Virus record (IMG/VR): IMGVR_UViG_3300050119_000364
Span: 1-51,560 of that record
Length of the DNA: 51,560 bases
From: a virus
Direction: 5' to 3' (one strand)
The position numbers were made by a program, and so were the translations under genes. The notes under the pieces were generated by a model. It had not been told where the DNA came from. It worked only from the letters and a program-made list of their open reading frames with translations, and made no database searches. Shown one piece after another: positions 920-51,430 of this stretch (position 1 is the first letter of the stretch; the number at the start of each line of letters is the position of its first letter).

Positions 920-1522
920 ATGCGGGGGAGATGGTTTGTTATCACGCTCATAGGCTTTAGCACTATTTTCTTTTCTTTCCTTTCTGGGATGATTATCCGA
1001 GCTCTCTACGATAATCCTAATCACTTACCAATGTGGCTGCGCTGGACTTGCGGGGCAGTGTTACCGCTTATAGCCATCTTCGCTATTTTTGTATTTAATT
1101 CTCACCGTATCTTTAAGGTTCCCCAATGGCGAGATCCCGCCACCATCTCCAATGAAGAATGGCGGAACTTTTTTCGAACACAAAAGCAAATCAGGGAACA
1201 TACACGGCGATTTGAAAACTGGCAATGGCTTAAAGAACTCAAAAACTGGTTTTACGAATCTAACGTCACTGTCGACGCTTCGCTCAAACATTCCGTAAGC
1301 CAGATGAACACGTTCTGGAATTACCACGAAAAACAGTTCATTGAAGGGGAACTTGATCACGACCAGTTCCGGCTTGCCCTCCAGCATTTCCTATTCCCCG
1401 AATCAAAGCCACAACCTCCGCATCCACCATCGGAACCACCGAAAGCCGACCCTCCTCCTAAGGATGAACGCCCGTGGTGGTCGCCGCGCAAGAATACGCA
1501 GAGAGACCGCATTGACGTATGA
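920..1522 (+). CDS. Two-TM membrane protein with Pro-rich cytoplasmic tail, partner of the VirD4-like ATPase
   Basis: A 200-residue protein with hydrophobic helices at about residues 6-27 and 40-60, then a long charged Trp-rich soluble region, and a C-terminal tail (about 158-185) dense in Pro, Lys and Glu. Its stop overlaps the next start (ATGA at 1519-1522), so the two are translationally coupled. VirD4/TraG coupling proteins normally carry their own N-terminal membrane anchor. Here the following ATPase lacks one, so this protein may supply the anchor in trans. That role is inferred from gene order; the sequence itself matches no family I recognise. Confidence 0.75.
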   Translation: MRGRWFVITLIGFSTIFFSFLSGMIIRALYDNPNHLPMWLRWTCGAVLPLIAIFAIFVFNSHRIFKVPQWRDPATISNEEWRNFFRTQKQIREHTRRFENWQWLKELKNWFYESNVTVDASLKHSVSQMNTFWNYHEKQFIEGELDHDQFRLALQHFLFPESKPQPPHPPSEPPKADPPPKDERPWWSPRKNTQRDRIDV

Positions 1523-3060
1523 GCGATTACTCTGACGAGCCCGAGACGCGGCTCCACTATTTATCGAGAAAATGGCGCTACATTGACGACGATGATCCTG
1601 CTGTCGTGCGCCAAACGCTCAACCTGTTTCTTGGCGAGTGGCGGGACACGGAAAAGATAAAGGCCGAGCGGAGGAAGAAGGCGGAGCGTGAAGAACGCGA
1701 TGCCCAGCGGAAAGCGGAGTACGAGGCAGAGCATCCGACACCCAATTTCCTCCCTTCGGATGTAAGCCTTCCGATCCCCGACAGTATCAGGGATCAGCAC
1801 ATTTACGTCCCCGGTGGTACGCGAAGGGGCAAATCGAGCCTCTTTCTCCACATGATCAATAACGACATCGAGCGCGGGGAGGGTGTGGCCGTCCTCGACC
1901 CGAAGGGCACGCTCATACGGGACATCTGCTACCACCTTCCGCGTGAGCGCGTCGTCGATGGTGAACGAAGAAACATCTTGGACGATGTCATCTATCTCGA
2001 CATCGACACCCCTGTATCCATCGATTTCATGGAGTGGACGAACCAGTCTGAATTCAAAAGCACCATCAACGACCTCGTGTTTCTCGTCACAAAAGGCGTT
2101 GACAACCTTCCGCGTGCCGAGCCGATTCTTAAGCGGGCCTTACGAAGCATCATGTCGATTCCCTATACGTCGTTTCTCGACGTCTATAGATTCTTCAGGT
2201 TTGAAGGAAGACGCAATGAAATTCAGAGCGCCCTCAAATCGGTAAACCCCGAGCTCTATGCGTCGTGGATACCCTTCCCGACCCCTGAAAAGTACGAGCC
2301 AATCCTTACGCGCATGGAAGCGTTCTATTGGGACCCCGTTTTCAAGGCAATCTTCGGGACGTCGCGCCCGAAATTGTCCATCTCCCGAGTGATGAACGAA
2401 AAGAAAATCCTCCTTGCAAACCTCGCTCCCCCCGGAGCCGACGACTCAAAGTTTTACGGAGGACTGTTGTTATCCCGCTTCCAGCAGGCTGCCATGCGGA
2501 GAGCGAACCTCCCGAAGAGCAAATGCAAGCCTTTTTACTTCTATGTCGATGAGTTCGAGTGCTTCCAAACCGGATCATTCGCCGACATTTTCTCGGTCGC
2601 CGGAGGGTATGGGCTCCGCATGACTATCGGAAACCAGTATCTCGGTCAAATCATTTCCTCCAATCTCGACGCGATTCTTGGGAACACGGGGACGTACATC
2701 ATCTTTCAAATCGGCTCAAACGACAGCCACCGGTTTGCGAACAAGGTCAAACCCTACGACGCATCGCATCTCGAGAATCTGCAACCGCGCCAAGCGATGT
2801 TCAAGATCGGGAACGAGCCTCCTGTTTTTAAATGGACGAAGCCCGTGGAATTTCCAGACGAGGAAGGGGAAGAATACGCGGGAAAGGTCATGGAGAAGCT
2901 GAGGAAGATCACCATCGACCGTTACGGCCCCGATACAGACGACGCAGAAATCAGCACAATACTCAATTCACAGCATCCCCCTTTACATTCCACGGGAATT
3001 CCACAAGATAAAGGGGATGACATCTGGGAGCCGGAATCTAAAGATCACGGGGACGCGTGA
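1519..3060 (+). CDS. VirD4/TraG-like DNA-translocating ATPase
   Basis: A 513-residue P-loop ATPase. The Walker A is GGTRRGKSS (about residues 99-107), followed by a strand ending VAVLDPKG, a hallmark of the VirD4/TraD/HerA group. The Walker B is FYFYVDEFE (about 339-347), with a glutamine-containing GNQYLGQI motif after it that fits the sensor region. The N-terminus is a charged helix with no membrane segment. Family members pump DNA through a membrane channel or along DNA as hexamers. It follows a small membrane protein (4-nt overlap) and overlaps the replication-relaxation gene by 44 nt. A conjugation-type coupling ATPase inside a phage genome is unusual; the substrate is unknown. Confidence 0.85.
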   Translation: MSDYSDEPETRLHYLSRKWRYIDDDDPAVVRQTLNLFLGEWRDTEKIKAERRKKAEREERDAQRKAEYEAEHPTPNFLPSDVSLPIPDSIRDQHIYVPGGTRRGKSSLFLHMINNDIERGEGVAVLDPKGTLIRDICYHLPRERVVDGERRNILDDVIYLDIDTPVSIDFMEWTNQSEFKSTINDLVFLVTKGVDNLPRAEPILKRALRSIMSIPYTSFLDVYRFFRFEGRRNEIQSALKSVNPELYASWIPFPTPEKYEPILTRMEAFYWDPVFKAIFGTSRPKLSISRVMNEKKILLANLAPPGADDSKFYGGLLLSRFQQAAMRRANLPKSKCKPFYFYVDEFECFQTGSFADIFSVAGGYGLRMTIGNQYLGQIISSNLDAILGNTGTYIIFQIGSNDSHRFANKVKPYDASHLENLQPRQAMFKIGNEPPVFKWTKPVEFPDEEGEEYAGKVMEKLRKITIDRYGPDTDDAEISTILNSQHPPLHSTGIPQDKGDDIWEPESKDHGDA

Positions 3061-8621: not shown

Positions 8622-8640
8622 TCTCAAAGCGCGAATCTAA

Positions 8641-8647
8641 AGGTCGC
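8641..8647 (+). promoter_or_regulatory. Leader element AGGTCGC, variant of a recurring leader motif
   Basis: TAAAGGTCGCAAAC lies 25 nt before the ATG at 8673. Closely similar sequences (TAAAAGGTCGARRAAYC) precede the genes at 15510, 36512, 37068 and 44102. Confidence 0.35.
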
Positions 8648-8672
8648 AAACTAACCAACCCCATCCCAATCC

Positions 8673-8819
8673 ATGATTGACCACAATATCCTTTGGAGCC
8701 GAGCCATCGGCTTCGACGGTCGCATCGTGAAGGAGCCGACCGTGTTCGGGGCGGCGCTCATCGGCCTCGCATTCTTCGCCGGCCTTGCGCTCCTCATTTT
8801 CTTGTTTGCGTTTTTGTAA
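8673..8819 (+). CDS. Small membrane protein, 48 aa
   Basis: The ATG at 8673 follows the A/C-rich leader CCCAATCC. A polar N-terminus (MIDHNILWSRAIGFDGRIVK) is followed by one long hydrophobic helix at about residues 24-48 that reaches the C-terminus. Function unknown. After the stop another frame stays open to 8900 with plausible residues (IERGIEEWEADYRTGC) but lacks a start. Confidence 0.5.
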   Translation: MIDHNILWSRAIGFDGRIVKEPTVFGAALIGLAFFAGLALLIFLFAFL

Positions 8820-14982: not shown

Positions 14983-15480
14983 ATGCTCAGATTCATCGCA
15001 AAGCGGTATGCGAAGGCGCAATACCGATTCAGACAGGAAGTGGAAGCGGCCACGAACGACCTGAACGCCGGCCTTGCGACGAGACTTGCCAAGGAAAAGC
15101 GCGATCTCGTCTCAGGCCTCAATGCCGAAGCGGACGCAATGGACGCCCGGATCAAGGAAGTGGGCGAGCTGGAGGAGAAGGGCTTTTATTCGTGTGAGAA
15201 CGGCCACGAGAGCACAATCGGCGACCTCAAAGGCTCGGACCAGTGGGTCTGCTCGATCTGCCACGAACCCGCGAAATTCATCAAGCGGGACCAGATGACC
15301 GGACAGGAGAAATACGAATCCGACAAGGAGCGCGGCGAGGCCGAGGACATCGCGAAGCAGAAACGCGATCAGGCGAAAGCTGAGGAAGATAACGCGGCCC
15401 AGAGCGAGAAGGCCGCGAAGTATTTCCAAGCGCTCGCCACGAATACCCGCAACACGGCTGAAAAGATCAGGAAACTGTAA
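14983..15480 (+). CDS. Coiled-coil protein with central zinc ribbon
   Basis: A 165-residue protein. Long charged helices (about 10-55 and 100-160) flank a zinc motif: C71, H74, C90, C93 (FYSCENGHES, WVCSICHEP). No enzyme motif. It begins directly at the stop of the small membrane gene. A scaffold or adaptor function is possible. I do not recognise the family. Confidence 0.6.
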   Translation: MLRFIAKRYAKAQYRFRQEVEAATNDLNAGLATRLAKEKRDLVSGLNAEADAMDARIKEVGELEEKGFYSCENGHESTIGDLKGSDQWVCSICHEPAKFIKRDQMTGQEKYESDKERGEAEDIAKQKRDQAKAEEDNAAQSEKAAKYFQALATNTRNTAEKIRKL

Positions 15481-15493
15481 AAGGTCGAGAAAC
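15481..15493 (+). promoter_or_regulatory. Leader element AAGGTCGAGAAAC
   Basis: This element directly follows a TAA stop and lies 21 nt before the ATG at 15510. Similar copies precede the genes at 36512, 37068 and 44102. Confidence 0.35.
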
Positions 15494-15509: not shown

Positions 15510-15770
15510 ATGGCAGATTACGAAGCAGCGGCCGAAGGCGGCATCAAGGAAAAGGGAACTGCGGCGCCGGCGGAACAGTCCGCAACGGCAGCTCAGGCCG
15601 AAGAAGCGGAGAAGACCGAAGGCGGTCAGGAAGGCACGGCCGAAGGTTCCGAAGCGGAGAACACCGGAGACGAGTCCGGCGACGAGGGCTCCAAAGCCGA
15701 AGAGGAATCGTCCGACAAGGAGAAATCCGAGGACGGCGAGGAATCGGACGGCGAAGAAGCGTCGGAATAG
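15510..15770 (+). CDS. Highly acidic disordered protein, 86 aa
   Basis: Almost entirely Glu, Asp, Ala, Gly, Ser and Lys, with no hydrophobic core, so it is intrinsically disordered. The charge pattern recalls DNA-mimic or chaperone-like acidic proteins, but this cannot be decided from composition. It lies in the operon upstream of the terminase block. Codon use and frame are consistent with neighbours. Confidence 0.5.
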   Translation: MADYEAAAEGGIKEKGTAAPAEQSATAAQAEEAEKTEGGQEGTAEGSEAENTGDESGDEGSKAEEESSDKEKSEDGEESDGEEASE

Positions 15771-30875: not shown

Positions 30876-32105
30876 GTGGAAAAAGAACAAATCGTAGAGG
30901 TGGTCTCAAAGACCGTCTCCGAGGGGTTCAACGACTTCTTTGAGAAGAAGCTGGCCCCGGCGATGGATGAAATCTCCATCAAGAATGCACGTCAGGTCGT
31001 AGAAGCCGCGATGGCCGAACGCTCCGTCAAGGGCTTCGACATCACGGGCCTCACGACCGACCAGAAGATGGCCTTCGCCAAGCAGGTGCAGGCAGTCTTC
31101 CGCGGCAACCGCGAGGGTGCTTTGAAGGTGAAAGCCAACGAAGCGCTCATCGAGGAACAGGACAACCGCGGCGGCTACTTGGTCGAACCGGAAGTTGCGG
31201 CAGCGATCCTTCGTATCGCCGCTTCGGTCGGTACGATCCTGAAGCAAGCGCAGAAGTGGCCGATGAAGACCGATGAGTTGGGCATCCCCAACTACACCGG
31301 CTCCTTCCTTACCGGTTCGTATGTCGGCGTCGATCTTCCGGGAACCGTCACCGGACTCACGTTCGGTCAGGCGGTCCTCATCGCCCGCAAGTGGCAGCTC
31401 GCGTTCACCGTCGGCAACGACCTTTTGGCCGATGCCTCGGTGCAGCTCGCGGACTGGCTCATGGCGATGGCAGGCGAGGCGCTCGCGAACATGATCGACC
31501 AGCAGGGCTTCGTTGGCGGCGGCACTGTCGCCGGCACGGCCTATACCGGTCCCTTCGTCGGCATCATGAACACGGCGAACGTCAATACGTACACGTTGTC
31601 TTCGGGCAACACGACGTATGCGAAGTTCAATCCGGTCACGGATGCCGCGAACGTCATCGCGACCTTGGAGGAATCGATCTTGGACGGCGCCGCGTGGTAC
31701 TTCCACCGCACCGTCTGGGCTGCGGTCCGATCCGAGCTCGCTTCGAGCTCCGGCATTCCGTTCCTCTTCCTTTCAGGAGCAGGCAGCAATCTGAAGGACG
31801 AAGCGGGCGGCGGTCCGATCAAGCCCGCGGGCGAGATGGCCGGTTATCCGGTCTTCACGAACCGCTGGCTCCCGGCCACGACCGTCGGCTCTCAGGCCAA
31901 CACCGCGTTCGGCATCTTCGGCAACCTCAAGGCGTGCGCCTTCGGCGACAAGGGCGACCTCCGCGTCGCGCAGTTCGAGTCAGGCTCGTTCGGCGGCAAG
32001 GAGATCGCGTTGGCCGACCAGCGCGGCATCGTCTACAAGCACCGTCACGCCTTCGTGGTCGTGCTCCCCAAAGCGTTCACCGTCATCTACACGGCGGCTT
32101 CGTAG
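30876..32105 (+). CDS. Major capsid protein (HK97 fold)
   Basis: A 409-residue protein, GTG start. The first 100 residues are charged and helical, the expected delta domain removed by the protease. The HK97 core follows with GYLVEPEVAAAILRIAASVG, then a P-loop-like IGNDLLADASVQLADWLM region, AFIDQQGFVGGGT-type glycine turn and a conserved GYPVFTNRWLPA near the C-terminus. It follows the protease-scaffold gene as in most HK97-type phages. A strong hairpin lies in the 3' flank. Confidence 0.9.
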   Translation: MEKEQIVEVVSKTVSEGFNDFFEKKLAPAMDEISIKNARQVVEAAMAERSVKGFDITGLTTDQKMAFAKQVQAVFRGNREGALKVKANEALIEEQDNRGGYLVEPEVAAAILRIAASVGTILKQAQKWPMKTDELGIPNYTGSFLTGSYVGVDLPGTVTGLTFGQAVLIARKWQLAFTVGNDLLADASVQLADWLMAMAGEALANMIDQQGFVGGGTVAGTAYTGPFVGIMNTANVNTYTLSSGNTTYAKFNPVTDAANVIATLEESILDGAAWYFHRTVWAAVRSELASSSGIPFLFLSGAGSNLKDEAGGGPIKPAGEMAGYPVFTNRWLPATTVGSQANTAFGIFGNLKACAFGDKGDLRVAQFESGSFGGKEIALADQRGIVYKHRHAFVVVLPKAFTVIYTAAS

Positions 32106-35226: not shown

Positions 35227-35475
35227 GTGGATATTCCCAACAAAACCAACAAACAAATAGACGGTTCAGAGACGGCCAACAAGGACGTGCAGCCGTCATA
35301 TTCCCGCGCCGCGTCCGTTCTTGAGAACGATTATTTCTATCCCGAAGCGAACGGCTATCAGGCCATCGCGGTCCGCGCGGCGACGCGCGAGGACGCGCAC
35401 GCAATCTATCTCGCAAAGCGGAAGCCGGTGAATCCGGAGGAAAAGGTCGATGAATCAGAAACCAAGAACGATTAA
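35227..35475 (+). CDS. Small hypothetical protein in the tail block, 82 aa
   Basis: An 82-residue hydrophilic protein (GTG start after CACCACATTC). The middle part (VLENDYFYPEANGYQAIAVR, then ATREDAHAIYLAKRKPV) looks like a short folded unit; both ends are disordered. It begins 17 nt after the terminator-like gene and ends 2 nt before the tail tube gene. Confidence 0.55.
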   Translation: MDIPNKTNKQIDGSETANKDVQPSYSRAASVLENDYFYPEANGYQAIAVRAATREDAHAIYLAKRKPVNPEEKVDESETKND

Positions 35476-35477
35476 CT

Positions 35478-36482
35478 ATGGCAGCAAAAGGCATAGGGCG
35501 ACGGTTCAGTATCGGCATCGCGAAAGAAGTGACCCGCGGCACCGCTATATCGTCCGCCAACCATTGGCTTCCCTTCAGTGATGCATCTCTCGATGAAAAG
35601 TACGAGAACGTCACGCAGGACGAGGCATTCGGCATCATCGAAGATTCCGTAGGCCAATTCCGCACGAAGAACTGGGCCGAAGGTAAGCTCTCGGTTCCCG
35701 TCACGGACCTCAGCCTCCCGCTCATCATGTACGCCATGTTCGGAGCGAGCGCAGACAGCACGCACTCCGGTGAAACGACCGTCTACGACCACAAGGCAAC
35801 GGTCGCCGAATCGGCGCAGCATCAGTCACTCACGCTCTTCATCCACGATCCGCTTTCGGGCGTCGATTACTCCCACGCGCTGGGTGTCATCCACAAGATG
35901 GACCTCGACGTGGAGCTCAAGAAGTTCGCGGAGCTTTCTCTCTCCGTAAAGGCGCAAAAAGGCGCCTCCCAGTCCTCCTTCAGCCCTTCAATCGCTGCGG
36001 AGAACCGCTTCCTCCCGCAGTACATGACGTTCAAGTATGCGACCTCGGTCTCCGGACTCTCCGGCGCGACCGCGATTGCGCTCAAATCGGCCAAGCTCTC
36101 CATCAACGCGAATATCGAAGATGACGACGTGCTCGGCAGTATCGCCCCGATCGACTACCTCAACAAGGAATTCGCGGTCACGGGGCAGCTTGAGGCCATC
36201 TGGCAGAACGAGGCCGACTTCAAAACGGTCGCGCTCGCCACGCCGAACGTGCCGCAGGCGCTCTCGATCGTGTTGCAGAACACGGATGTCAGTATCGGCG
36301 TCGTACCGTCGCATCCGACCGTGAACATCACGCTCGATCAGGTCTACTTCACGGACATCTCTCGGCCGATCAAGGTCAAAGATCTCGTATACCAAACCAT
36401 TAAGTGGAAGGGTACGTATTCTACGGCCAACAGTGAGATGTTGAATATCGTGACCACAAACACCGCCGCGACGAGCGCGTAG
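35478..36482 (+). CDS. Major tail tube protein
   Basis: A 334-residue protein starting MAAKGIGRRFSIGIAKEVTR with GTAISSANHWLPFSDASL, the opening typical of siphovirus tube proteins. It is followed by beta-rich segments such as ITLDQVYFTDISRPIKVKDL near the end. The protein stacks as rings round the tape measure. The frameshifted chaperone pair and the tape measure gene follow, which confirms its place. Confidence 0.8.
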   Translation: MAAKGIGRRFSIGIAKEVTRGTAISSANHWLPFSDASLDEKYENVTQDEAFGIIEDSVGQFRTKNWAEGKLSVPVTDLSLPLIMYAMFGASADSTHSGETTVYDHKATVAESAQHQSLTLFIHDPLSGVDYSHALGVIHKMDLDVELKKFAELSLSVKAQKGASQSSFSPSIAAENRFLPQYMTFKYATSVSGLSGATAIALKSAKLSINANIEDDDVLGSIAPIDYLNKEFAVTGQLEAIWQNEADFKTVALATPNVPQALSIVLQNTDVSIGVVPSHPTVNITLDQVYFTDISRPIKVKDLVYQTIKWKGTYSTANSEMLNIVTTNTAATSA

Positions 36483-36494
36483 GTCGAAAATCAA
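36482..36494 (+). promoter_or_regulatory. Leader element GGTCGAAAATCAA
   Basis: This copy overlaps the stop of the tube gene and lies 24 nt before the ATG at 36512. It is a variant of the recurring TAAAAGGTCGARRAAYC motif. Confidence 0.35.
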
Positions 36495-36511: not shown

Positions 36512-36814
36512 ATGTCAGAAAGCAAAACAAAAACAGTCACCACGCCTTCCGGCGTCGCAGTTGAATTGAAGGAGTACATCACCGCCGGCGAATTCCTCGA
36601 CCTTAACGAAGACAGCGAGAAAAACGGCCTTTCGAAGACCGCGCTCGCAACCAAAATCTCTGAAATCGCGATCATCTCTATCGATGGCGCGAAAGAGAAC
36701 ATCTCCGCAAAGCTCAGGGAACTCCCCATCGCTGATTACACATTCCTTCAGAGGGAAATTAAGAAGCTCATTGACGGGGATTTTACGGAGGCGAAGGATC
36801 AAGCTCAGAGCTGA
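36512..36814 (+). CDS. Tail assembly chaperone, short form (gpG-like)
   Basis: A 100-residue protein. It begins with a beta hairpin (TVTTPSGVAVELKEYITAGE) typical of gpG-type chaperones, followed by helices (LATKISEIAIISIDGAKENI and TFLQREIKKLIDGD). It lies directly between tube and tape-measure genes. Such proteins hold the tape measure during tail assembly. The frame ends in TGA at 36812-36814, but a second frame continues (see next entry). Confidence 0.75.
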   Translation: MSESKTKTVTTPSGVAVELKEYITAGEFLDLNEDSEKNGLSKTALATKISEIAIISIDGAKENISAKLRELPIADYTFLQREIKKLIDGDFTEAKDQAQS

Positions 36815-36999: not shown

Positions 37000-37044
37000 T
37001 CCTTGCTTTTTCTTCGTAGCTATGGCTTAGTGAAGGCGTCGCAA

Positions 37045-37057
37045 GGTCGAAGAATCA
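37045..37057 (+). promoter_or_regulatory. Leader element GGTCGAAGAATCA
   Basis: It ends 10 nt before the ATG at 37068 and is identical over 13 nt to the copy at 44079. Both copies have GGTCGA exactly 17 nt before the start codon. Confidence 0.4.
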
Positions 37058-37067
37058 ATCATTTGCA

Positions 37068-37205
37068 ATGGAAACATTTCTTATTCTGCTCGTATTTGTA
37101 GGCGGCCCAATCGGGTTCGCCGCGTTGTTGGGGATTGCCGTACATAATCGCGCCAAGCAACGCAAAGCGGTCTACGATGCCGCACAAAAGTATCTCCAGT
37201 CCTAA
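37068..37205 (+). CDS. Small single-TM protein, 45 aa
   Basis: An ATG at 37068 opens 45 codons with one hydrophobic helix (FLILLVFVGGPIGFAALLGI) and a basic tail (HNRAKQRKAVYDAAQKYL). It lies just before the tape measure gene. A short phage membrane protein; function unknown. Confidence 0.5.
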   Translation: METFLILLVFVGGPIGFAALLGIAVHNRAKQRKAVYDAAQKYLQS

Positions 37206-43191: not shown

Positions 43192-44076
43192 ATGCCCAAG
43201 AACCTCGGCGCATTGGAACGCCCGAAAGATCCCCGCGATGTCCTCCTCGGGTCAGTTCAAGCGCCGGTCCAGATCCCCGCGACGTTCATTCCAAATGTCC
43301 AAGCGTGGCTCGTCCGCAACTATCAGGGCGAAACGCCGTTCTGCGGCGAACACGCCGGCGCGCACTTCAAGGCGATCCTCGACAACGTCGCATCCGGCGC
43401 GGTCGAGCGGAAATCTCCGCGCTACGGTGCGATCAAGCTGAAGTCCCCGTCGTCGCCCGTGTACGACGGCATTGCGATCGCCGATGGGACGACCATGACC
43501 GCTATTTTCAAATGGCTGGAGAAGGTCGGCGCTGACGACTATGAGCCGCTTGAGAATGACGTGACGCTGCCCCTTGCGACCTATTGCGAAGCCTCCGCCG
43601 TTACCCCCGCCATGGATGCCGATGCGGCCGCGTCCCTCATCGGTTCCTACGCATTCGGCGCGACCGACTTCGCATCGATCTGTCAGGCGATCTACCAAAA
43701 CAAAGCGGTCATTCTTCTCATCAAATGCGATGACGGCTTCTGGGGTACGGCGACGCCGACCTTCACCACTCCGACGTACGGCCACTTCGTCGTCGCCTAC
43801 GGATACGACGGGGCGGGAATTTATGTCGTGGACTCGGCCGACCCGCAGAACGAATTCGCGTTCAAGCACATCCTCGCGCATTACATAACCCCTACCTTCT
43901 TCTTCGAATCGGGCACCGCGATCGATCTTCCCCCGGCGGTGAAACAAGCGCTCACGACGAATACCGCCGTTCCCGCGAGCGTCACGAGCGCCCTTTCAAC
44001 CGGCCAGCTCTCGCTCGCCGAGCAAATTCTTAACGATATTGAGTCGGCACTCGCCCTGATCAAGCAGGAGCTCTAA
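43192..44076 (+). CDS. Papain-like (C1-type) cysteine protease
   Basis: A 294-residue protein. The catalytic set can be read in papain order: Q45 and C51 in QGETPFCGEHAGAHF, H198 in YGHFVVAYGYD, and D214 in VVDSADP, where papain has Asn. The Q-to-C distance of six residues matches papain. The C-terminal 60 residues are a helical tail. No signal peptide. Papain-like enzymes are rare as phage lysis or virion proteins; this one stands between lysis-type membrane proteins, so it could cut peptide cross-links or surface proteins, or act inside the host. Target unknown. Confidence 0.75.
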   Translation: MPKNLGALERPKDPRDVLLGSVQAPVQIPATFIPNVQAWLVRNYQGETPFCGEHAGAHFKAILDNVASGAVERKSPRYGAIKLKSPSSPVYDGIAIADGTTMTAIFKWLEKVGADDYEPLENDVTLPLATYCEASAVTPAMDADAAASLIGSYAFGATDFASICQAIYQNKAVILLIKCDDGFWGTATPTFTTPTYGHFVVAYGYDGAGIYVVDSADPQNEFAFKHILAHYITPTFFFESGTAIDLPPAVKQALTTNTAVPASVTSALSTGQLSLAEQILNDIESALALIKQEL

Positions 44077-44078
44077 AA

Positions 44079-44091
44079 GGTCGAAGAATCA
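44079..44091 (+). promoter_or_regulatory. Leader element GGTCGAAGAATCA
   Basis: Directly after the TAA of the protease gene; GGTCGA lies 17 nt before the ATG at 44102. Same 13 nt as at 37045. Confidence 0.4.
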
Positions 44092-44101
44092 CTTCACCAC
44101 A

Positions 44102-44320
44102 ATGCTTACGAAACTCGCGGGATACAAGACGTACGCCCTCGGTACGCTTGGAATCCTTTACGCCGTCGGCGGTTTTTTCACCGGGCATCTTGACTCGCAA
44201 ACCGCCCTCGGCATCGTTTTCGCCGCGCTTACTGCGATGGGAATTCGGAACGGTATCACGACAGAAGTTCAGGCGCTCGCAGCCAAGCTCCCCGATAAGA
44301 CACTTCCGCCCCAGCAATAG
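44102..44320 (+). CDS. Holin-like small membrane protein
   Basis: A 72-residue protein with two hydrophobic segments (about 8-27 and 33-50: YALGTLGILYAVGGFFTG, then ALGIVFAALTAMGIRNGI) and a polar C-terminal tail. The layout is that of small phage holins or holin-like proteins. Located at the end of the late operon, after the tail fibre and protease genes. It probably permeabilises the inner membrane to let the lysin act. Confidence 0.65.
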   Translation: MLTKLAGYKTYALGTLGILYAVGGFFTGHLDSQTALGIVFAALTAMGIRNGITTEVQALAAKLPDKTLPPQQ

Positions 44321-44442
44321 CCGAAATGAGGACCTGAGTGTCCTCTCCTGCTTCGCCGCGGCCAAACCAAGCGCTTTCGACCCGCTTGAAACCGCCGTAG
44401 CGGGGCAGGGCAGGGCACTTAAAGTCCTTTGGGATTTGAACT

Positions 44443-44601
44443 TCCAGCGCTATCAGGAAGCGTTCCTCGGTCTGGGAAGACCCGGCGCGCGCGATGGACA
44501 TTTCTTGATAGCGCTGGGCGTTTGAAAAAGGAATTCTCCTCGACAGGATTCCCCTGCTAAACGGCACAAGCGCCCAAGCCCTTTCACAACAAGGAGAATT
44601 C
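44443..44601 (+). promoter_or_regulatory. Structured 5' leader that sequesters the Shine-Dalgarno of the next gene
   Basis: CCAGCGCTATCAGGAA (44444-44459) pairs with TTCTTGATAGCGCTGG (44502-44517) over 16 bp with one G-U; inside, GGTCT/AGACC (44469-44482) closes a GGGA tetraloop. Downstream, GAATTCTCCT (44531-44540) pairs perfectly with AGGAGAATTC (44592-44601), hiding the Shine-Dalgarno AGGAG of the gene at 44603. This is the layout of a riboswitch, RNA thermometer or protein-controlled leader. The hairpin GAGGAC/GTCCTC at 44328-44345 may end the late operon just before it. Confidence 0.6.
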
Positions 44602-44602
44602 A

Positions 44603-45319
44603 ATGGACCAGCTCATCGCCCATGCGGGAGCCAGTAAACTCTCGCGCGATCAACTTGTCACCATCCTTCCGCCGGAAGCGACGGACACCTTCAAACCAAT
44701 CAAACATGCCGATCTCGTGGACGAAGTCCATGAGGCATTGGCCCGGCGCCAGCTCTCCATCGTCCGGGACGAATACGCGGTCTCGGAAGACGGCATGAAG
44801 CTTTTCGGCGTCCTTGACCTCACGACCTCGGCGCAGGACTTCCGCTTCTCGATCGGCATCCGGAACGCGAACGACAAGTCCATGCGGTTCGGCATGGTCT
44901 CGGGCATCCGGGTATTCGTGTGCGACAACATGGCCTTCAACGGCGAGTTCTTCGCCATTCAGGCCAAGCACACGAAGAAGCTCCTCATCATGGACTCGAT
45001 CGCCTTGGGTATCGACCGCATCCAGCGGAACTTCAAACCTCTCACCGAACAGGTGGAGCGCTGGAAAGCGGATCAGCTTACGGACGACCGGGCGAAGGCG
45101 ATCATCTACGACGCTTTCATCGCCGGCAAACTCGAAGCCCCGAAGCACCTTGCGAAGCTCGTGGATCTTGCGTATTTCAAACCGCAGTATCCCGACTTCG
45201 AGCCGCGGAACGTGTGGTCGCTCCAAAACGCCTTCACGTCCGCCTTCAAGGTTCTCGAACCGATGCCCCAGTTCCGGGCGACGGCCAATCTCGGCGAGTT
45301 CTTCGCCGGGGTGAACTGA
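44603..45319 (+). CDS. DUF932 phage/plasmid-like protein
   Basis: A 238-residue protein of the DUF932 type common on plasmids and phages. Readable parts are DEVHEALARRQLSIVRDEYA, DLTTSAQDFRFSIGIRNAND, MRFGMVSGIRVFVCDNMAFN (the FVCDNMAF strand is typical) and FKVLEPMPQFRATANLGEFF at the end. Function is unknown; a role in replication or in protection of element DNA has been proposed for relatives. Strong Shine-Dalgarno AAGGAG, apparently buried in a leader helix. Confidence 0.8.
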   Translation: MDQLIAHAGASKLSRDQLVTILPPEATDTFKPIKHADLVDEVHEALARRQLSIVRDEYAVSEDGMKLFGVLDLTTSAQDFRFSIGIRNANDKSMRFGMVSGIRVFVCDNMAFNGEFFAIQAKHTKKLLIMDSIALGIDRIQRNFKPLTEQVERWKADQLTDDRAKAIIYDAFIAGKLEAPKHLAKLVDLAYFKPQYPDFEPRNVWSLQNAFTSAFKVLEPMPQFRATANLGEFFAGVN

Positions 45320-46199: not shown

Positions 46200-46793
46200 T
46201 TGTTGGGAATTAAACTTCTTCCGGAAGATATTAGAGCAACGTATCAAATTGAAGAGCGCCACCACGCGTGCGCGATTCTCAAGCTCGATTTTCCCAACGA
46301 ATGGGATGATCTCATCGCGGTATTGCGCGACTTCACCCTCAAGAAGAGCGCAGTGCAGGCGAAGGGAGGACGCAAATCTCCGATCGCCGAATCGATCGAC
46401 GGGCTCTTTGCCGGACGCAAATGGGTGGAAAAGAATTTCGAGATCAACGTCACTGCCGACGGTGTTTCGACCCTCGCGCCAACGCATTTGGTGGACTACT
46501 ACAAGAACCGGATCGCCATCGAGACCGAATGGAATAATAAGGACCCCTTTTTCGATCGCGATCTAACGACGTTCCGTTTGCTCTTCGACTTGAACGTCCT
46601 GAGCGTCGGGATCATCATCACGCGGGCAGATGAACTGCAGCAGATTTTCAAAGACGTGGGCAAGAAGACCGCTGCGGGCGCGTCCACGACTCACATGTCG
46701 AAGCTGATTCCCAAGATGGCGAACCGCGCTGGCGGCGGGTGCCCTGTCCTCGGGTTCGGAATCACCATAAAGAAGTTCGACCCGAACGCCTAA
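46200..46793 (+). CDS. BglII-family type II restriction endonuclease
   Basis: A 197-residue protein. The stretch IAIETEWNNKDPFFDRDLTT (about 101-120) is the signature of the BglII-family nucleases, with the acidic residues and Asn-Lys expected at the active site. DLNVLSVGIIITRADELQQI and a C-terminal GGGCPVLGFGITIKKFDP complete the fold. No ATG fits: the start is TTG at 46200 or TTG at 46203, the latter with GGAG 7 nt upstream. A weak start would keep the nuclease low. It is convergent with the methyltransferase gene and the stop codons overlap. BglII itself cuts AGATCT; the specificity of this enzyme cannot be read. Confidence 0.8.
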   Translation: MLGIKLLPEDIRATYQIEERHHACAILKLDFPNEWDDLIAVLRDFTLKKSAVQAKGGRKSPIAESIDGLFAGRKWVEKNFEINVTADGVSTLAPTHLVDYYKNRIAIETEWNNKDPFFDRDLTTFRLLFDLNVLSVGIIITRADELQQIFKDVGKKTAAGASTTHMSKLIPKMANRAGGGCPVLGFGITIKKFDPNA

Positions 46794-47485
46794 ACCTCGA
46801 AGAGCAGCCTCTCACCCTCGGGCAGTCTTCCACTTTGCGAATGATTCGCGTACGTGTTCCACGAGGGCGTGTACGATTCGTCTGCTTGATTGCCCCATGT
46901 TGTCCAACCCTTACGCTCACCGCGAGCGAAGAGTTCGAGGAATGGACCCCTGCTGCACGACTCGATGATCTTGTACTGTTCATCCGGCTTCCGAGAGTGT
47001 TCCCGCTTCCGGCTCGACAAATAGTTCACTTGTCGGCGCCCCGGCGCGAGCGTACGCGCGTTCTCCCCGCGGACGCCAAAGAGAATCAACTCAGTAACAT
47101 TGCGGAAATAAAATCCCACGCCGCGCCCGTCCGAACCGCCGTCTTTGCGGATCTTGTGCCACACGAGATTGCTTTTGTATTTGAATCCCCACGCCTGCAA
47201 CACCGCGATTCCCTCTGGCAACAGGGCATTCGGGCACCAGAGGTAGAGGTGAGCCGTAGGGGCCGCGATCGAGGAGACCGGTAGCTTGATGATGTCGTCA
47301 AGCTTCAATGTCCCGTAACGCGAGAGGCGCTTATGCTCGGGAGCGACCTTGCCGGTGCGGTTCTGGAATTGCCACGGCGGATCGCAGAGGATCGTACCGA
47401 ATTTTCGTTTACCAACGAACCCCAGCAGATCTTCAGCGGGGGAATGGGTCGTGTCGCTTGCCCGGCACGTCTTCATAGCCCTCAT
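46790..47485 (-). CDS. MT-A70 family DNA adenine methyltransferase
   Basis: A 231-residue protein. It has the catalytic DPPW motif in FGTILCDPPWQFQNRTGKVA (about 31-50), APTAHLYLWCPNALLPEGIA, and the SAM-binding ELILFGVRGE and FLELFARGERKGWTTWGNQA at the C-terminal end. MT-A70 enzymes make N6-methyladenine. Paired tail to tail with the BglII-family nuclease, it should protect phage and host sites. The ATG at 47485 was chosen; 47476 (ATG) and a TTG at 47548 are alternatives. Confidence 0.85.
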   Translation of the reverse strand: MRAMKTCRASDTTHSPAEDLLGFVGKRKFGTILCDPPWQFQNRTGKVAPEHKRLSRYGTLKLDDIIKLPVSSIAAPTAHLYLWCPNALLPEGIAVLQAWGFKYKSNLVWHKIRKDGGSDGRGVGFYFRNVTELILFGVRGENARTLAPGRRQVNYLSSRKREHSRKPDEQYKIIESCSRGPFLELFARGERKGWTTWGNQADESYTPSWNTYANHSQSGRLPEGERLLFEV

Positions 47486-47650
47486 GTTTGCATTTTCTTC
47501 GTCCCCCTGCAATTGGCAGACTGTGGACAACAGGGCTTGAATTCCCAATCTGGCATGCCATGCTTAAAGCGTCCCCAAACCATCCGCCGCCCTTCAATGT
47601 GGCGGCAGCGCGAATCAGCGCGGGCCGTGAGTGAGAGTACCGGCCGCATT

Positions 47651-50225: not shown

Positions 50226-51278
50226 TCAGGGAACCCACGTCGCCTTCACCGCCTCATTCAGCGCATCCTGCCGCTGGGCGATCCAGTGCGAATACGATCG
50301 CTCGACGATCCGAGGAGTATTTCCCAAAATCGCCGCGACTTCGCTCACGGAGATTCCCTTTGAAAGCAGCTCGACGGCGAGCGTATGCCGGAACCGGTGC
50401 GCTGTAATTTTTATCTTTGCGATCTTCGAGAGCCGCAGGAGCGTCCTCTGCCAATCGGAAACCGCCGACTTCGGCTTCCCTTCTCCGGACCAGAAAAAAT
50501 ACTCGCCTTGCGGCTTCATCTCCTCGATCGCATTTTCGATCTCCGGGTGCACCGGAATCATGACCCTCTTTCCGTTTTTCGCGGTCCGGAGCGTGATGTG
50601 TCCGTCTTTTAATTTCGCCCGGTCGAGCTGCACCACGTCGCCGATGCGCAGGCCGCTCCACCGGAGGACGGAAATGAAGGCACGGAGCCGCAGCCGATTC
50701 CCTTCCCCGTAGATCCCCCACGCGGGGAATTTCGCGATCGCTTTCTCGATCTTTGCGAGCTCATCCGGCTCGTAGGGCTTGCGCTCGATCTCGACTTCTT
50801 TCGGCAGTTTGAGGGCTTTCGCCGGGTTCTTTTCCATCCATTCCCGATCAATCGCAAACCGGAAGAAGGAACGGAGCCGGGCGATTTTCATCCGCACGGT
50901 GATATTCGCGCCCTTGAATGTCTCCCTGAATTTCGCGACATCATCGACGGACAAGGTATGCACGGCGCGATCGCCGAAAAATGCGACCATGTCGCGCTTC
51001 AAAAGCCGGTATTTCCCTATCGTCGCTTCTGCCGCCTTATTCGCCTCGAACTGCCCGATGAAGCGGTCAAAGGCGTCCTCGATCGAGACCACGCTCCGCA
51101 TCCCGCGCACTTCCCAATCCCTCACGAGCTTCTGCGCGGCTTCCCAATTCGTGAGGTCGAGCGACTTGCGGATAGCTTCGCCGTGCAACGTGCCCTGCGC
51201 CCATATCGGGCATGAACACTTCGCCTTCCGCGACTTCAATTTGCATTTCGCGCGATGACGGCGGTACAGGGTAAGCAT
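50226..51278 (-). CDS. int: Tyrosine recombinase (phage integrase)
   Basis: A 350-residue integrase. The N-terminal part has a Cys-containing lead (CKLKSRKAKCSCPIWAQG, probably zinc-binding) followed by the SAM-like core-binding domain (about 60-160). The catalytic set is visible: Arg in WSGLRIGDVVQLDR, Lys in LRTAKNGKRVMIP, HRFRHTLAVELLSKG, and Tyr in VERSYSHW near the C-terminus. The ATG at 51278 has GGGAGGA upstream and gives the family N-terminus MLTLYRRH, which I associate with integrases of Acidobacteriota. It lies 75 bp inside attR and should act on the tRNA-Met 3' end. Confidence 0.95.
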   Translation of the reverse strand: MLTLYRRHRAKCKLKSRKAKCSCPIWAQGTLHGEAIRKSLDLTNWEAAQKLVRDWEVRGMRSVVSIEDAFDRFIGQFEANKAAEATIGKYRLLKRDMVAFFGDRAVHTLSVDDVAKFRETFKGANITVRMKIARLRSFFRFAIDREWMEKNPAKALKLPKEVEIERKPYEPDELAKIEKAIAKFPAWGIYGEGNRLRLRAFISVLRWSGLRIGDVVQLDRAKLKDGHITLRTAKNGKRVMIPVHPEIENAIEEMKPQGEYFFWSGEGKPKSAVSDWQRTLLRLSKIAKIKITAHRFRHTLAVELLSKGISVSEVAAILGNTPRIVERSYSHWIAQRQDALNEAVKATWVP

Positions 51279-51309
51279 GGCGTCCTCCCGAGTACGTATC
51301 GAGGACGCC

Positions 51310-51341
51310 ATTGTAAACATCTTTCTAATCTATTGTAAACA
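51310..51341. promoter_or_regulatory. Two ATTGTAAACA direct repeats, 22 bp apart (integrase arm sites)
   Basis: ATTGTAAACA occurs at 51310-51319 and 51332-51341, two helical turns apart, between the integrase start and attR. This spacing suits integrase arm-type sites. They may also overlap the integrase promoter, allowing self-regulation. Confidence 0.5.
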
Positions 51342-51352
51342 CATAACTTAGG

Positions 51353-51378
51353 TTGGTGGCGGCGGGTAGGATCGAACT
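51353..51378. repeat. attR: 3' end of the tRNA-Met gene
   Basis: 51353-51374 equals 106-127; ACTA follows after one mismatch. The repeat lies within the intact tRNA gene, so the integrated phage keeps the tRNA functional. Confidence 0.93.
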
Positions 51379-51430
51379 ACCGACCTTGGGGTTATGAATC
51401 CCACGCTCTAACCATCTGAGCTACGCCGCC
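51354..51430 (-). tRNA. tRNA-Met (anticodon CAT)
   Basis: A 77-nt cloverleaf on the minus strand. The acceptor GGCGGCG pairs with CGCCGCC over 7 bp, followed by the discriminator A and an encoded CCA (51354-51356 as TGG on the plus strand). D-loop TAGCTCAGATGGTTAGAGC and T-loop GTTCGATCC are standard. The anticodon CAT lies at 51394-51396. The D-arm and loop sequence resemble elongator tRNA-Met, though tRNA-Ile with a modified CAT cannot be fully excluded. It is the integration site. Confidence 0.95.

What the first reader, a model, noticed from the sequence alone, without database searches (positions are those of the whole stretch)
44443..44602. Leader RNA that buries its own Shine-Dalgarno
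A 16-bp imperfect helix with a GGGA-capped inner hairpin is followed by a perfect 10-bp pairing (44531-44540 with 44592-44601) that covers the whole Shine-Dalgarno of the DUF932 gene. Most genes in this phage lack a Shine-Dalgarno, so a strong but buried one stands out. It looks like a translational switch that may sense temperature, a ligand or a protein.
Basis: partly seen in the sequence, partly recalled or inferred. Interest (0 to 1): 0.68.

Follow-up and report, generated by a model that had tools for sequence, protein, structure and literature searches.

The report
Phage RNA antisense to leader signal

Summary
The 10-bp pairing over the Shine-Dalgarno (SD) occurs only in the window and its near-identical relatives. 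In other relatives the homologous strand makes a local hairpin, and anti-SD pairing is mostly at shuffle level.

What is conserved is a larger element, 44328-44575. Its module is a long hairpin with strongly covarying stems. The 3' arm can pair either with the 5' arm (P1) or with a downstream strand (P2), and both pairings covary. In 24 of 29 modules the apical loop holds UUCGACC.

That loop is the exact complement of the most enriched leader motif in these phages, AAAGGUCGAA. It lies mostly 22-40 nt before start codons, never together with an SD (0 of 58). The element sits at a sharp boundary: upstream genes are SD-less and sometimes boxed; downstream genes are often SD-led and never boxed.

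I propose an unlisted phage RNA that base-pairs with leader boxes of the phage's own mRNAs. Structure and complementarity are shown; the pairing, its direction and its effect are inferred. Rfam has no match.

The parts
44076..44086 (+). Leader box AAAGGTCGAAG; its GG lies 23 nt before the ATG (44102) of the 72-aa holin-like gene
   Evidence: most enriched leader motif in 11 related phages
8639..8648 (+). Leader box AAAGGTCGCA before ORF 8673-8819
15480..15489 (+). Leader box AAAGGTCGAG before ORF 15510-15770
35442..35451 (+). Leader box AAAGGTCGAT before the tail-tube gene 35478-36482 (overlaps the end of the reading frame before it)
36480..36490 (+). Leader box variant TAGGTCGAAAA before ORF 36512-36814
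37043..37052 (+). Leader box AAGGTCGAAG before a 45-aa ORF at 37068
44328..44429 (+). Module 1: long hairpin with apical loop antisense to the leader box
   Evidence: apical stem covaries across 20 sequences
44374..44382 (+). Apical loop CTTTCGACC, containing the exact complement of GGTCGAAA
44435..44526 (+).
44516..44524 (+). Shared 3' arm (X): its first five bases pair with 44441-44445 (P1, one mismatch) or the whole arm with 44567-44575 (P2)
44530..44552 (+).
   Evidence: homologous hairpin in L091 and L096
44531..44540 (+). Anti-Shine-Dalgarno strand GAATTCTCCT (10-nt complement restricted to the window lineage)
44555..44566 (+). Local hairpin C2 (TGCT-AAAC-GGCA); AACC-loop counterparts in relatives
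44567..44575 (+). P2 3' strand CAAGCGCCC
44592..44601 (+). Shine-Dalgarno region AGGAGAATTC of the DUF932 gene
44603..45319 (+). DUF932-like gene, 238 aa
   Evidence: PF06067 at 22.2 bits, just under the 23-bit cut-off; 17-member alignment

Best explanation
The region encodes a member of an unlisted, conserved phage RNA element, one to three tandem hairpin modules, between the lysis or other late genes and the DUF932 operon. Shown: conserved structure with compensatory changes; a conserved apical loop; exact complementarity of that loop to the commonest leader motif of the same phages; a 3' arm with two alternative partners. Inferred: the loop, made as part of the late or DUF932 transcript and possibly released by cleavage of the long helix, pairs with the AAAGGUCGAA box about 25 nt upstream of the start codons of a set of SD-less phage genes (in the window: portal, tail tube, holin-like and others) and changes their translation, more likely lowering it by covering the ribosome landing zone. 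The P1/P2 exchange would couple the state of the module to the SD-led DUF932 operon behind it. The 10-bp SD helix in this lineage is a late addition to that leader.
For: (1) Apical stem: 95% of 120 cells paired, covariation score 0.868 against 0.237 for shuffles and at most 0.251 for slid controls, 5 of 6 pairs with double changes (20 sequences). (2) UUCGACC in the apical loop of 24 of 29 modules while stems differ freely. (3) Over 577 leaders of 11 phages the four most enriched 7-mers are AAAGGTC (46 seen, 3.1 expected), AAGGTCG (52, 4.8), AGGTCGA (39, 4.1), GGTCGAA (36, 4.1), ahead of AAGGAGG (21, 1.9). (4) 21 of 32 modules have at least 7 contiguous loop-box pairs; 0 of 2000 permuted boxes do as well. 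(5) Other registers also cover the box: UUCGACCUUU (L090, L098, L102), UUGACCUUU (L106), CGACCUUU (L124). (6) All 23 AARGGTCGHAA matches in 10 phages lie on one strand per record, reversed-pattern control 3; these are the majority-gene strands. (7) Box in 14 of 14 phages with the loop and 6 of 18 other records. (8) Box and SD exclude each other, 0 of 58 against 84 of 519. (9) Acidobacteriota 16S holds no 7-nt complement of the box. (10) P1 and P2 both maintained. (11) Isolated non-Watson-Crick pairs: 11 G-U against 2 A-C, as for RNA of the coding strand. Predicted loop-box duplex -10.0 to -13.2 kcal/mol.
Against: No expression data at all. The loop is not universal: L100, L166, L167, L240 and L116 have a module but no loop match, L113 only a partial one, although boxes occur in most of these loci. 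In L106 and L124 the complementary strand is predicted partly paired. The window boxes are not predicted to be especially open (mean unpaired 0.36-0.58 against 0.47-0.66 for their surroundings). Base-by-base covariation of loop with box is weak: only a post hoc difference (59 of 91 against 16 of 38 boxes with A after GGTCG, p = 0.02, uncorrected). Both motifs contain the palindrome UCGA, which gives part of the match. The phages are related, so counts are not independent. Stability of the two strands is alike (coding strand better in 11 of 29).
Confidence: 0.47

Rival explanations
1. The element is a cis-acting leader of the DUF932 operon only: a protein or metabolite binds the conserved loop and base of the module and shifts P1/P2, changing read-through or translation of DUF932. 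The match of loop to box is coincidence or a shared protein-binding sequence.
For: In front of the DUF932 gene or its operon in the loci read; alternative helices with compensatory changes; invariant closing G-C and loop; conserved base GAACGUCC/GGGCGCU.
Against: An exact 7-8-nt complement to the most enriched leader motif is unlikely by chance (0 of 2000 permuted boxes), and the other loop registers still cover the box. The P2 hairpin is not followed by a run of T in the window (no terminator-like site on the coding strand).
Confidence: 0.22
2. The long helices are RNase III processing or mRNA-protecting hairpins that separate the late message from the DUF932 message; loop sequence is conserved for an unrelated reason.
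For: Long helices directly behind stop codons: in L089, L102, L104 and L123 the stop codon TGA lies in TGAACGTC, and in L106 the module starts at the stop TAG. The element sits at the border of two gene classes.
Against: A cleavage site alone would not need an invariant apical loop or a doubly used 3' arm.
Confidence: 0.2
3. One reading: a translational switch that hides the Shine-Dalgarno of DUF932 through the 10-bp helix, sensing temperature, ligand or protein.
For: Perfect 10-bp helix; two states within about 3-6 kcal/mol in the window.
Against: Helix confined to the window lineage; other relatives mostly at shuffle level; homologous strand can form a local hairpin elsewhere.
Confidence: 0.08
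4. A DNA element (cruciform, packaging, recombination or replication site) rather than an RNA.
For: Both strands fold about equally well; HNH-like reading frames lie beside it in L083, L086 and L006 (read by eye).
Against: G-U exceeds A-C 11 to 2 in isolated helix positions; boxes strand-specific.
Confidence: 0.03

Closest known systems
CI RNA of satellite phage P4 (antisense to seqA and seqC)
   Same: A phage RNA, made by processing of a transcript, complementary to repeated short sequences in the phage's own transcripts (passage in PMC4825925 seen).
   Different: CI acts by transcription termination in immunity. Here the loop tops a long covarying hairpin and the putative targets are leader boxes of several genes. 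No sequence kinship was tested.
c4 RNA of phages P1/P7 and sar RNA of P22 (antisense to the ant message)
   Same: Phage-encoded RNAs pairing with phage mRNAs. sar is listed in the review table seen; c4 is recalled, and the search with its name returned no paper about it.
   Different: One target each, not a set of genes sharing a box; no P1/P2 architecture known to me.
PAK_P4as15, aQ and OOP phage antisense RNAs
   Same: Control of late, lysis or lysogeny functions by phage RNA (passages in PMC12197685).
   Different: Cis-encoded on the opposite strand; here the same strand and a short loop.
Translational riboswitches and RNA thermometers
   Same: Leader RNA with alternative helices in front of a Shine-Dalgarno.
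   Different: SD burial is not conserved; no Rfam family matches.

Membership tests
Translational riboswitch or RNA thermometer | Conserved structure that hides the Shine-Dalgarno | tested here: not met
   10-nt helix only in window and L087; 19 of the 22 other modules measured have 4-6 nt
Translational riboswitch or RNA thermometer | Match to a known aptamer or thermometer family | tested here: not met
   No such match in the window or 16 related loci at gathering scores; permissive scans of window 44000-44700 and L006 2200-2600 give only scores far below the families' cut-offs
Translational riboswitch or RNA thermometer | Mutually exclusive helices kept by compensatory change | tested here: met
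   P1 135/150 and P2 144/150 cells paired, 0 of 20000 shuffles as high (registers chosen by hand)
Translational riboswitch or RNA thermometer | Response to ligand or temperature | not testable with these tools
   Needs probing and reporters
Base-pairing regulatory RNA of a phage (P4 CI / c4 / sar kind) | Unpaired segment complementary to leaders of target mRNAs | tested here: met
Base-pairing regulatory RNA of a phage (P4 CI / c4 / sar kind) | Several sites of the same sequence in front of genes | tested here: met
   58 of 577 leaders, 2-7 per phage
Base-pairing regulatory RNA of a phage (P4 CI / c4 / sar kind) | Co-variation of the pairing segment with its target | tested here: inconclusive
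   Loop registers shift but stay on the box; base-level test weak, p = 0.02 post hoc
Base-pairing regulatory RNA of a phage (P4 CI / c4 / sar kind) | Stable RNA and effect on target expression | not testable with these tools
   No transcriptome held
Intrinsic-terminator attenuator | Hairpin followed by a run of U on the coding strand | tested here: not met
   No terminator-like site on the + strand of 43900-45000

The most novel reading that the evidence does not exclude
These phages run two translation-initiation regimes: SD-led genes, and SD-less genes of which a part carries the AAAGGUCGAA box 22-40 nt upstream of the start. A structured RNA placed exactly at the border carries the complement of the box in its loop and so acts as a global, RNA-only switch between the regimes during infection.
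Probability: 0.22. Interest if true: 0.85.

Novelty: new variant of a known kind. Interest (0 to 1): 0.62.

Why it matters
If right, this is a new structured phage RNA, seen so far in metagenomic phages whose nearest DUF932 relatives lie in Acidobacteriota genomes. It would come with its likely target list readable from the genome. The box is the commonest leader signal in these phages, is not at SD distance, and has no long complement in 16S rRNA; such signals in SD-poor genomes are poorly understood. A loop-box pairing can be tested directly by compensatory mutation.

Tried and rejected
Rejected or led nowhere. (a) Rfam: no family in window or loci apart from a tRNA far away. (b) Box as anti-16S signal: longest complement within the 16S of six Acidobacteriota genomes is 6 nt (its 7-nt hits in L283 and L286 lie outside positions 1501-3000, where the rRNA should sit in the locus). 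23S loci were fetched but not examined. (c) Box as a promoter: no second element at fixed distance. (d) Box as a host-wide feature: pattern no more frequent than its reversed control in four host genomes taken together, 18 against 21 hits. (e) DUF932 structure as a clue: model mean pLDDT 76, no PDB match at E <= 0.001. (f) Cultured phages: no DNA match to the leader, one distant DUF932 match, no capsid match. (g) Module outside this phage group: 11 hits of a module pattern in IMG/VR; 7 lie in the same phage group, the 4 others do not fold as modules. (h) Papers: (search listings) found nothing describing this element or box; passages were read in PMC4825925 and PMC12197685. The library lacks most subscription journals.

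Limits of the counts. The 29 modules were picked by eye from DUF932 loci. Near-duplicates L088, L107, L112 and L114 were left out, as was L165, whose motif offsets equal those of L091. Of 80 genome loci only L166, L167 and L240 were taken as modules. Most genome loci were scanned only for TTCGACC and CC[AG]GTAGC upstream, so modules with other loops there may be missed. L106, L124 and L116 were added later. One search uses the 20 modules with short loops, of 24 with UUCGACC. Gene starts are longest-ORF calls of my own script. One search stopped with an error after L118, so later modules lack the anti-SD measure.

Full report
What was claimed and what is there. Both are exact at the stated places. 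The leader 44321-44620 folds at z = -5.66 against dinucleotide shuffles.

The SD helix is local to one lineage. DUF932 relatives were fetched from IMG/VR and from bacterial genomes (all but two of the 80 titles name Acidobacteriota groups, that grouping being recalled). In the window and in L087, nearly identical here, 10 nt pair with the SD region. Of the 22 other modules measured, 19 have 4-6 nt, which is what shuffled sequence gives, and L090, L096 and L098 have 8, 9 and 9. In L091 and L096 the strand homologous to the anti-SD makes a local hairpin instead; in L092 a short local pairing competes with a 5-bp SD pairing. In the window itself the SD helix and the P2 state lie within a few kcal/mol, and which one wins depends on the end points folded.

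What is conserved. Upstream of the DUF932 operon these phages carry one or more modules with the plan GAACGUCC - variable helix - apical loop - variable helix - GGGCGCU, then a strand GCGCCC, then a leader like CACCUUCACAACUGAAAAGGAG before the start. Apical stems covary very strongly: 20 sequences, 95% of cells paired, score 0.868 against 0.237 for shuffles and at most 0.251 for slid partners. The 3' arm has two partners. In 30 rows from 29 modules it forms 135 of 150 possible pairs with the 5' arm and 144 of 150 with the downstream strand; no shuffle of 20000 reached either value. In L111, L115, L118 and L122 the arm is CGAG instead of GGGC and both partners have changed with it. The registers in that count were chosen by hand. 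Isolated non-Watson-Crick positions in helices are G-U 11 times and A-C twice, which speaks for an RNA of the coding strand, though folding energies of the two strands are alike.

The loop. UUCGACC is in the apical loop of 24 of 29 modules, always closed by G-C in the 20 with short loops. It is the reverse complement of GGUCGAA. An unbiased count of 7-mers in the 45 nt before the start codons of 577 called genes in 11 phages puts AAAGGTC, AAGGTCG, AGGTCGA and GGTCGAA in the first four places, above AAGGAGG. In the window, boxes stand before the portal, tail-tube and holin-like genes and others (the portal one, AAGGTCGTCG, lies in the end of the preceding reading frame, and the holin label rests on size and position only). 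The distance from GG to the start is mostly 22-40 nt. That is too far for an SD; 0 of 58 boxed leaders have an SD core against 84 of 519 others. The box is strand-specific, lacks a second element at fixed distance as a promoter would need, shows no excess over its reversed control in four host genomes taken together, and has no 7-nt complement inside Acidobacteriota 16S rRNA.

Testing loop against box. With loops taken from predicted structures, 21 of 32 modules pair with the box over 7 or more contiguous positions; none of 2000 permutations of the box reaches that count. Loops in other registers still cover the box: UUCGACCUUU in L090, L098 and L102, UUGACCUUU in L106 and CGACCUUU in L124. 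Phages with the loop all have boxes (14 of 14); of 18 other records 6 have a match, two of them (those of L121 and L147) on the strand opposite to DUF932, and two further ones (L106, L124) later proved to have shifted loops. Against: L100, L116, L166, L167 and L240 have no loop match and L113 a partial one; the window boxes are not unusually open; finer co-variation is weak.

A boundary. Among genes on the phage's main strand in 11 phages, those upstream of the module have an SD in 29 of 454 cases and a box in 58; those downstream have an SD in 27 of 60 cases and never a box (p = 1e-13 and 8e-4, gene starts called by my own script, phages related). The element therefore stands between two kinds of translation start.

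How it most likely works. Shown: a conserved folded RNA region with a double-use arm and a loop antisense to the phage's own leader signal. Inferred: the loop pairs with boxed leaders, in cis with the holin-like message a few hundred bases upstream or in trans with the others, and alters their translation; cleavage of the long helix may free the RNA; P1/P2 links this to the DUF932 operon. Repression is my guess for the direction, since the box lies at the upstream edge of the ribosome landing zone. Precedents for the principle are P4 CI RNA (passage in PMC4825925) and sar of P22 (table in PMC12197685); c4 of P1/P7 is recalled. It works like these; it is not shown to be kin to any of them.

Verdict. 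Observation confirmed; SD-burying switch unsupported outside this lineage; a conserved RNA element with a box-complementary loop takes its place. Confidence is high for the element (about 0.95), moderate for the pairing (0.47).

Noticed in passing
window 46200-46793 (+) and 46790-47548 (-): BglII-type restriction endonuclease (PF09195, E 1.1e-41) beside a DNA methyltransferase (phrog_359): a phage-borne restriction-modification pair close to the DUF932 operon.
   Followed up: no
window about 31388-31440, in the major capsid gene 30876-32105: A hairpin loop with CGACCTT/ACGACCT recurs in 12-13 of 19 phages and is itself complementary to AAAGGTCG; the leucine codons CTT TTG are kept in 11 of 14 phages. 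It may be coding conservation or a second box-complementary site.
   Followed up: partly
L006, L007, L010, L011, L012, L015, L077, L078, L081, L086; variants in L008, L103: A further module of about 90 nt, GAACCTCCACACCAGTAGC...GCTACTGGCGTGGGCGT with an AAGCCGCGCGGCTT core, is almost identical between phages whose DUF932 proteins share only about 60% identity with the window's. It looks like a strongly constrained or recently exchanged RNA domain.
   Followed up: partly
L083 and L086 between modules; L006 behind the modules: Reading frames that look like HNH endonucleases (by eye, no family search) are inserted next to the modules.
   Followed up: no
11 related phages: Most genes lack an SD and many have A/C-rich leaders; SD-led genes cluster downstream of the element.
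   Followed up: yes
window 51357-51430 (-): A tRNA gene at the end of the window, next to a 364-aa ORF at 50226-51320 on the same strand; possibly an attachment site, not tested.
   Followed up: no
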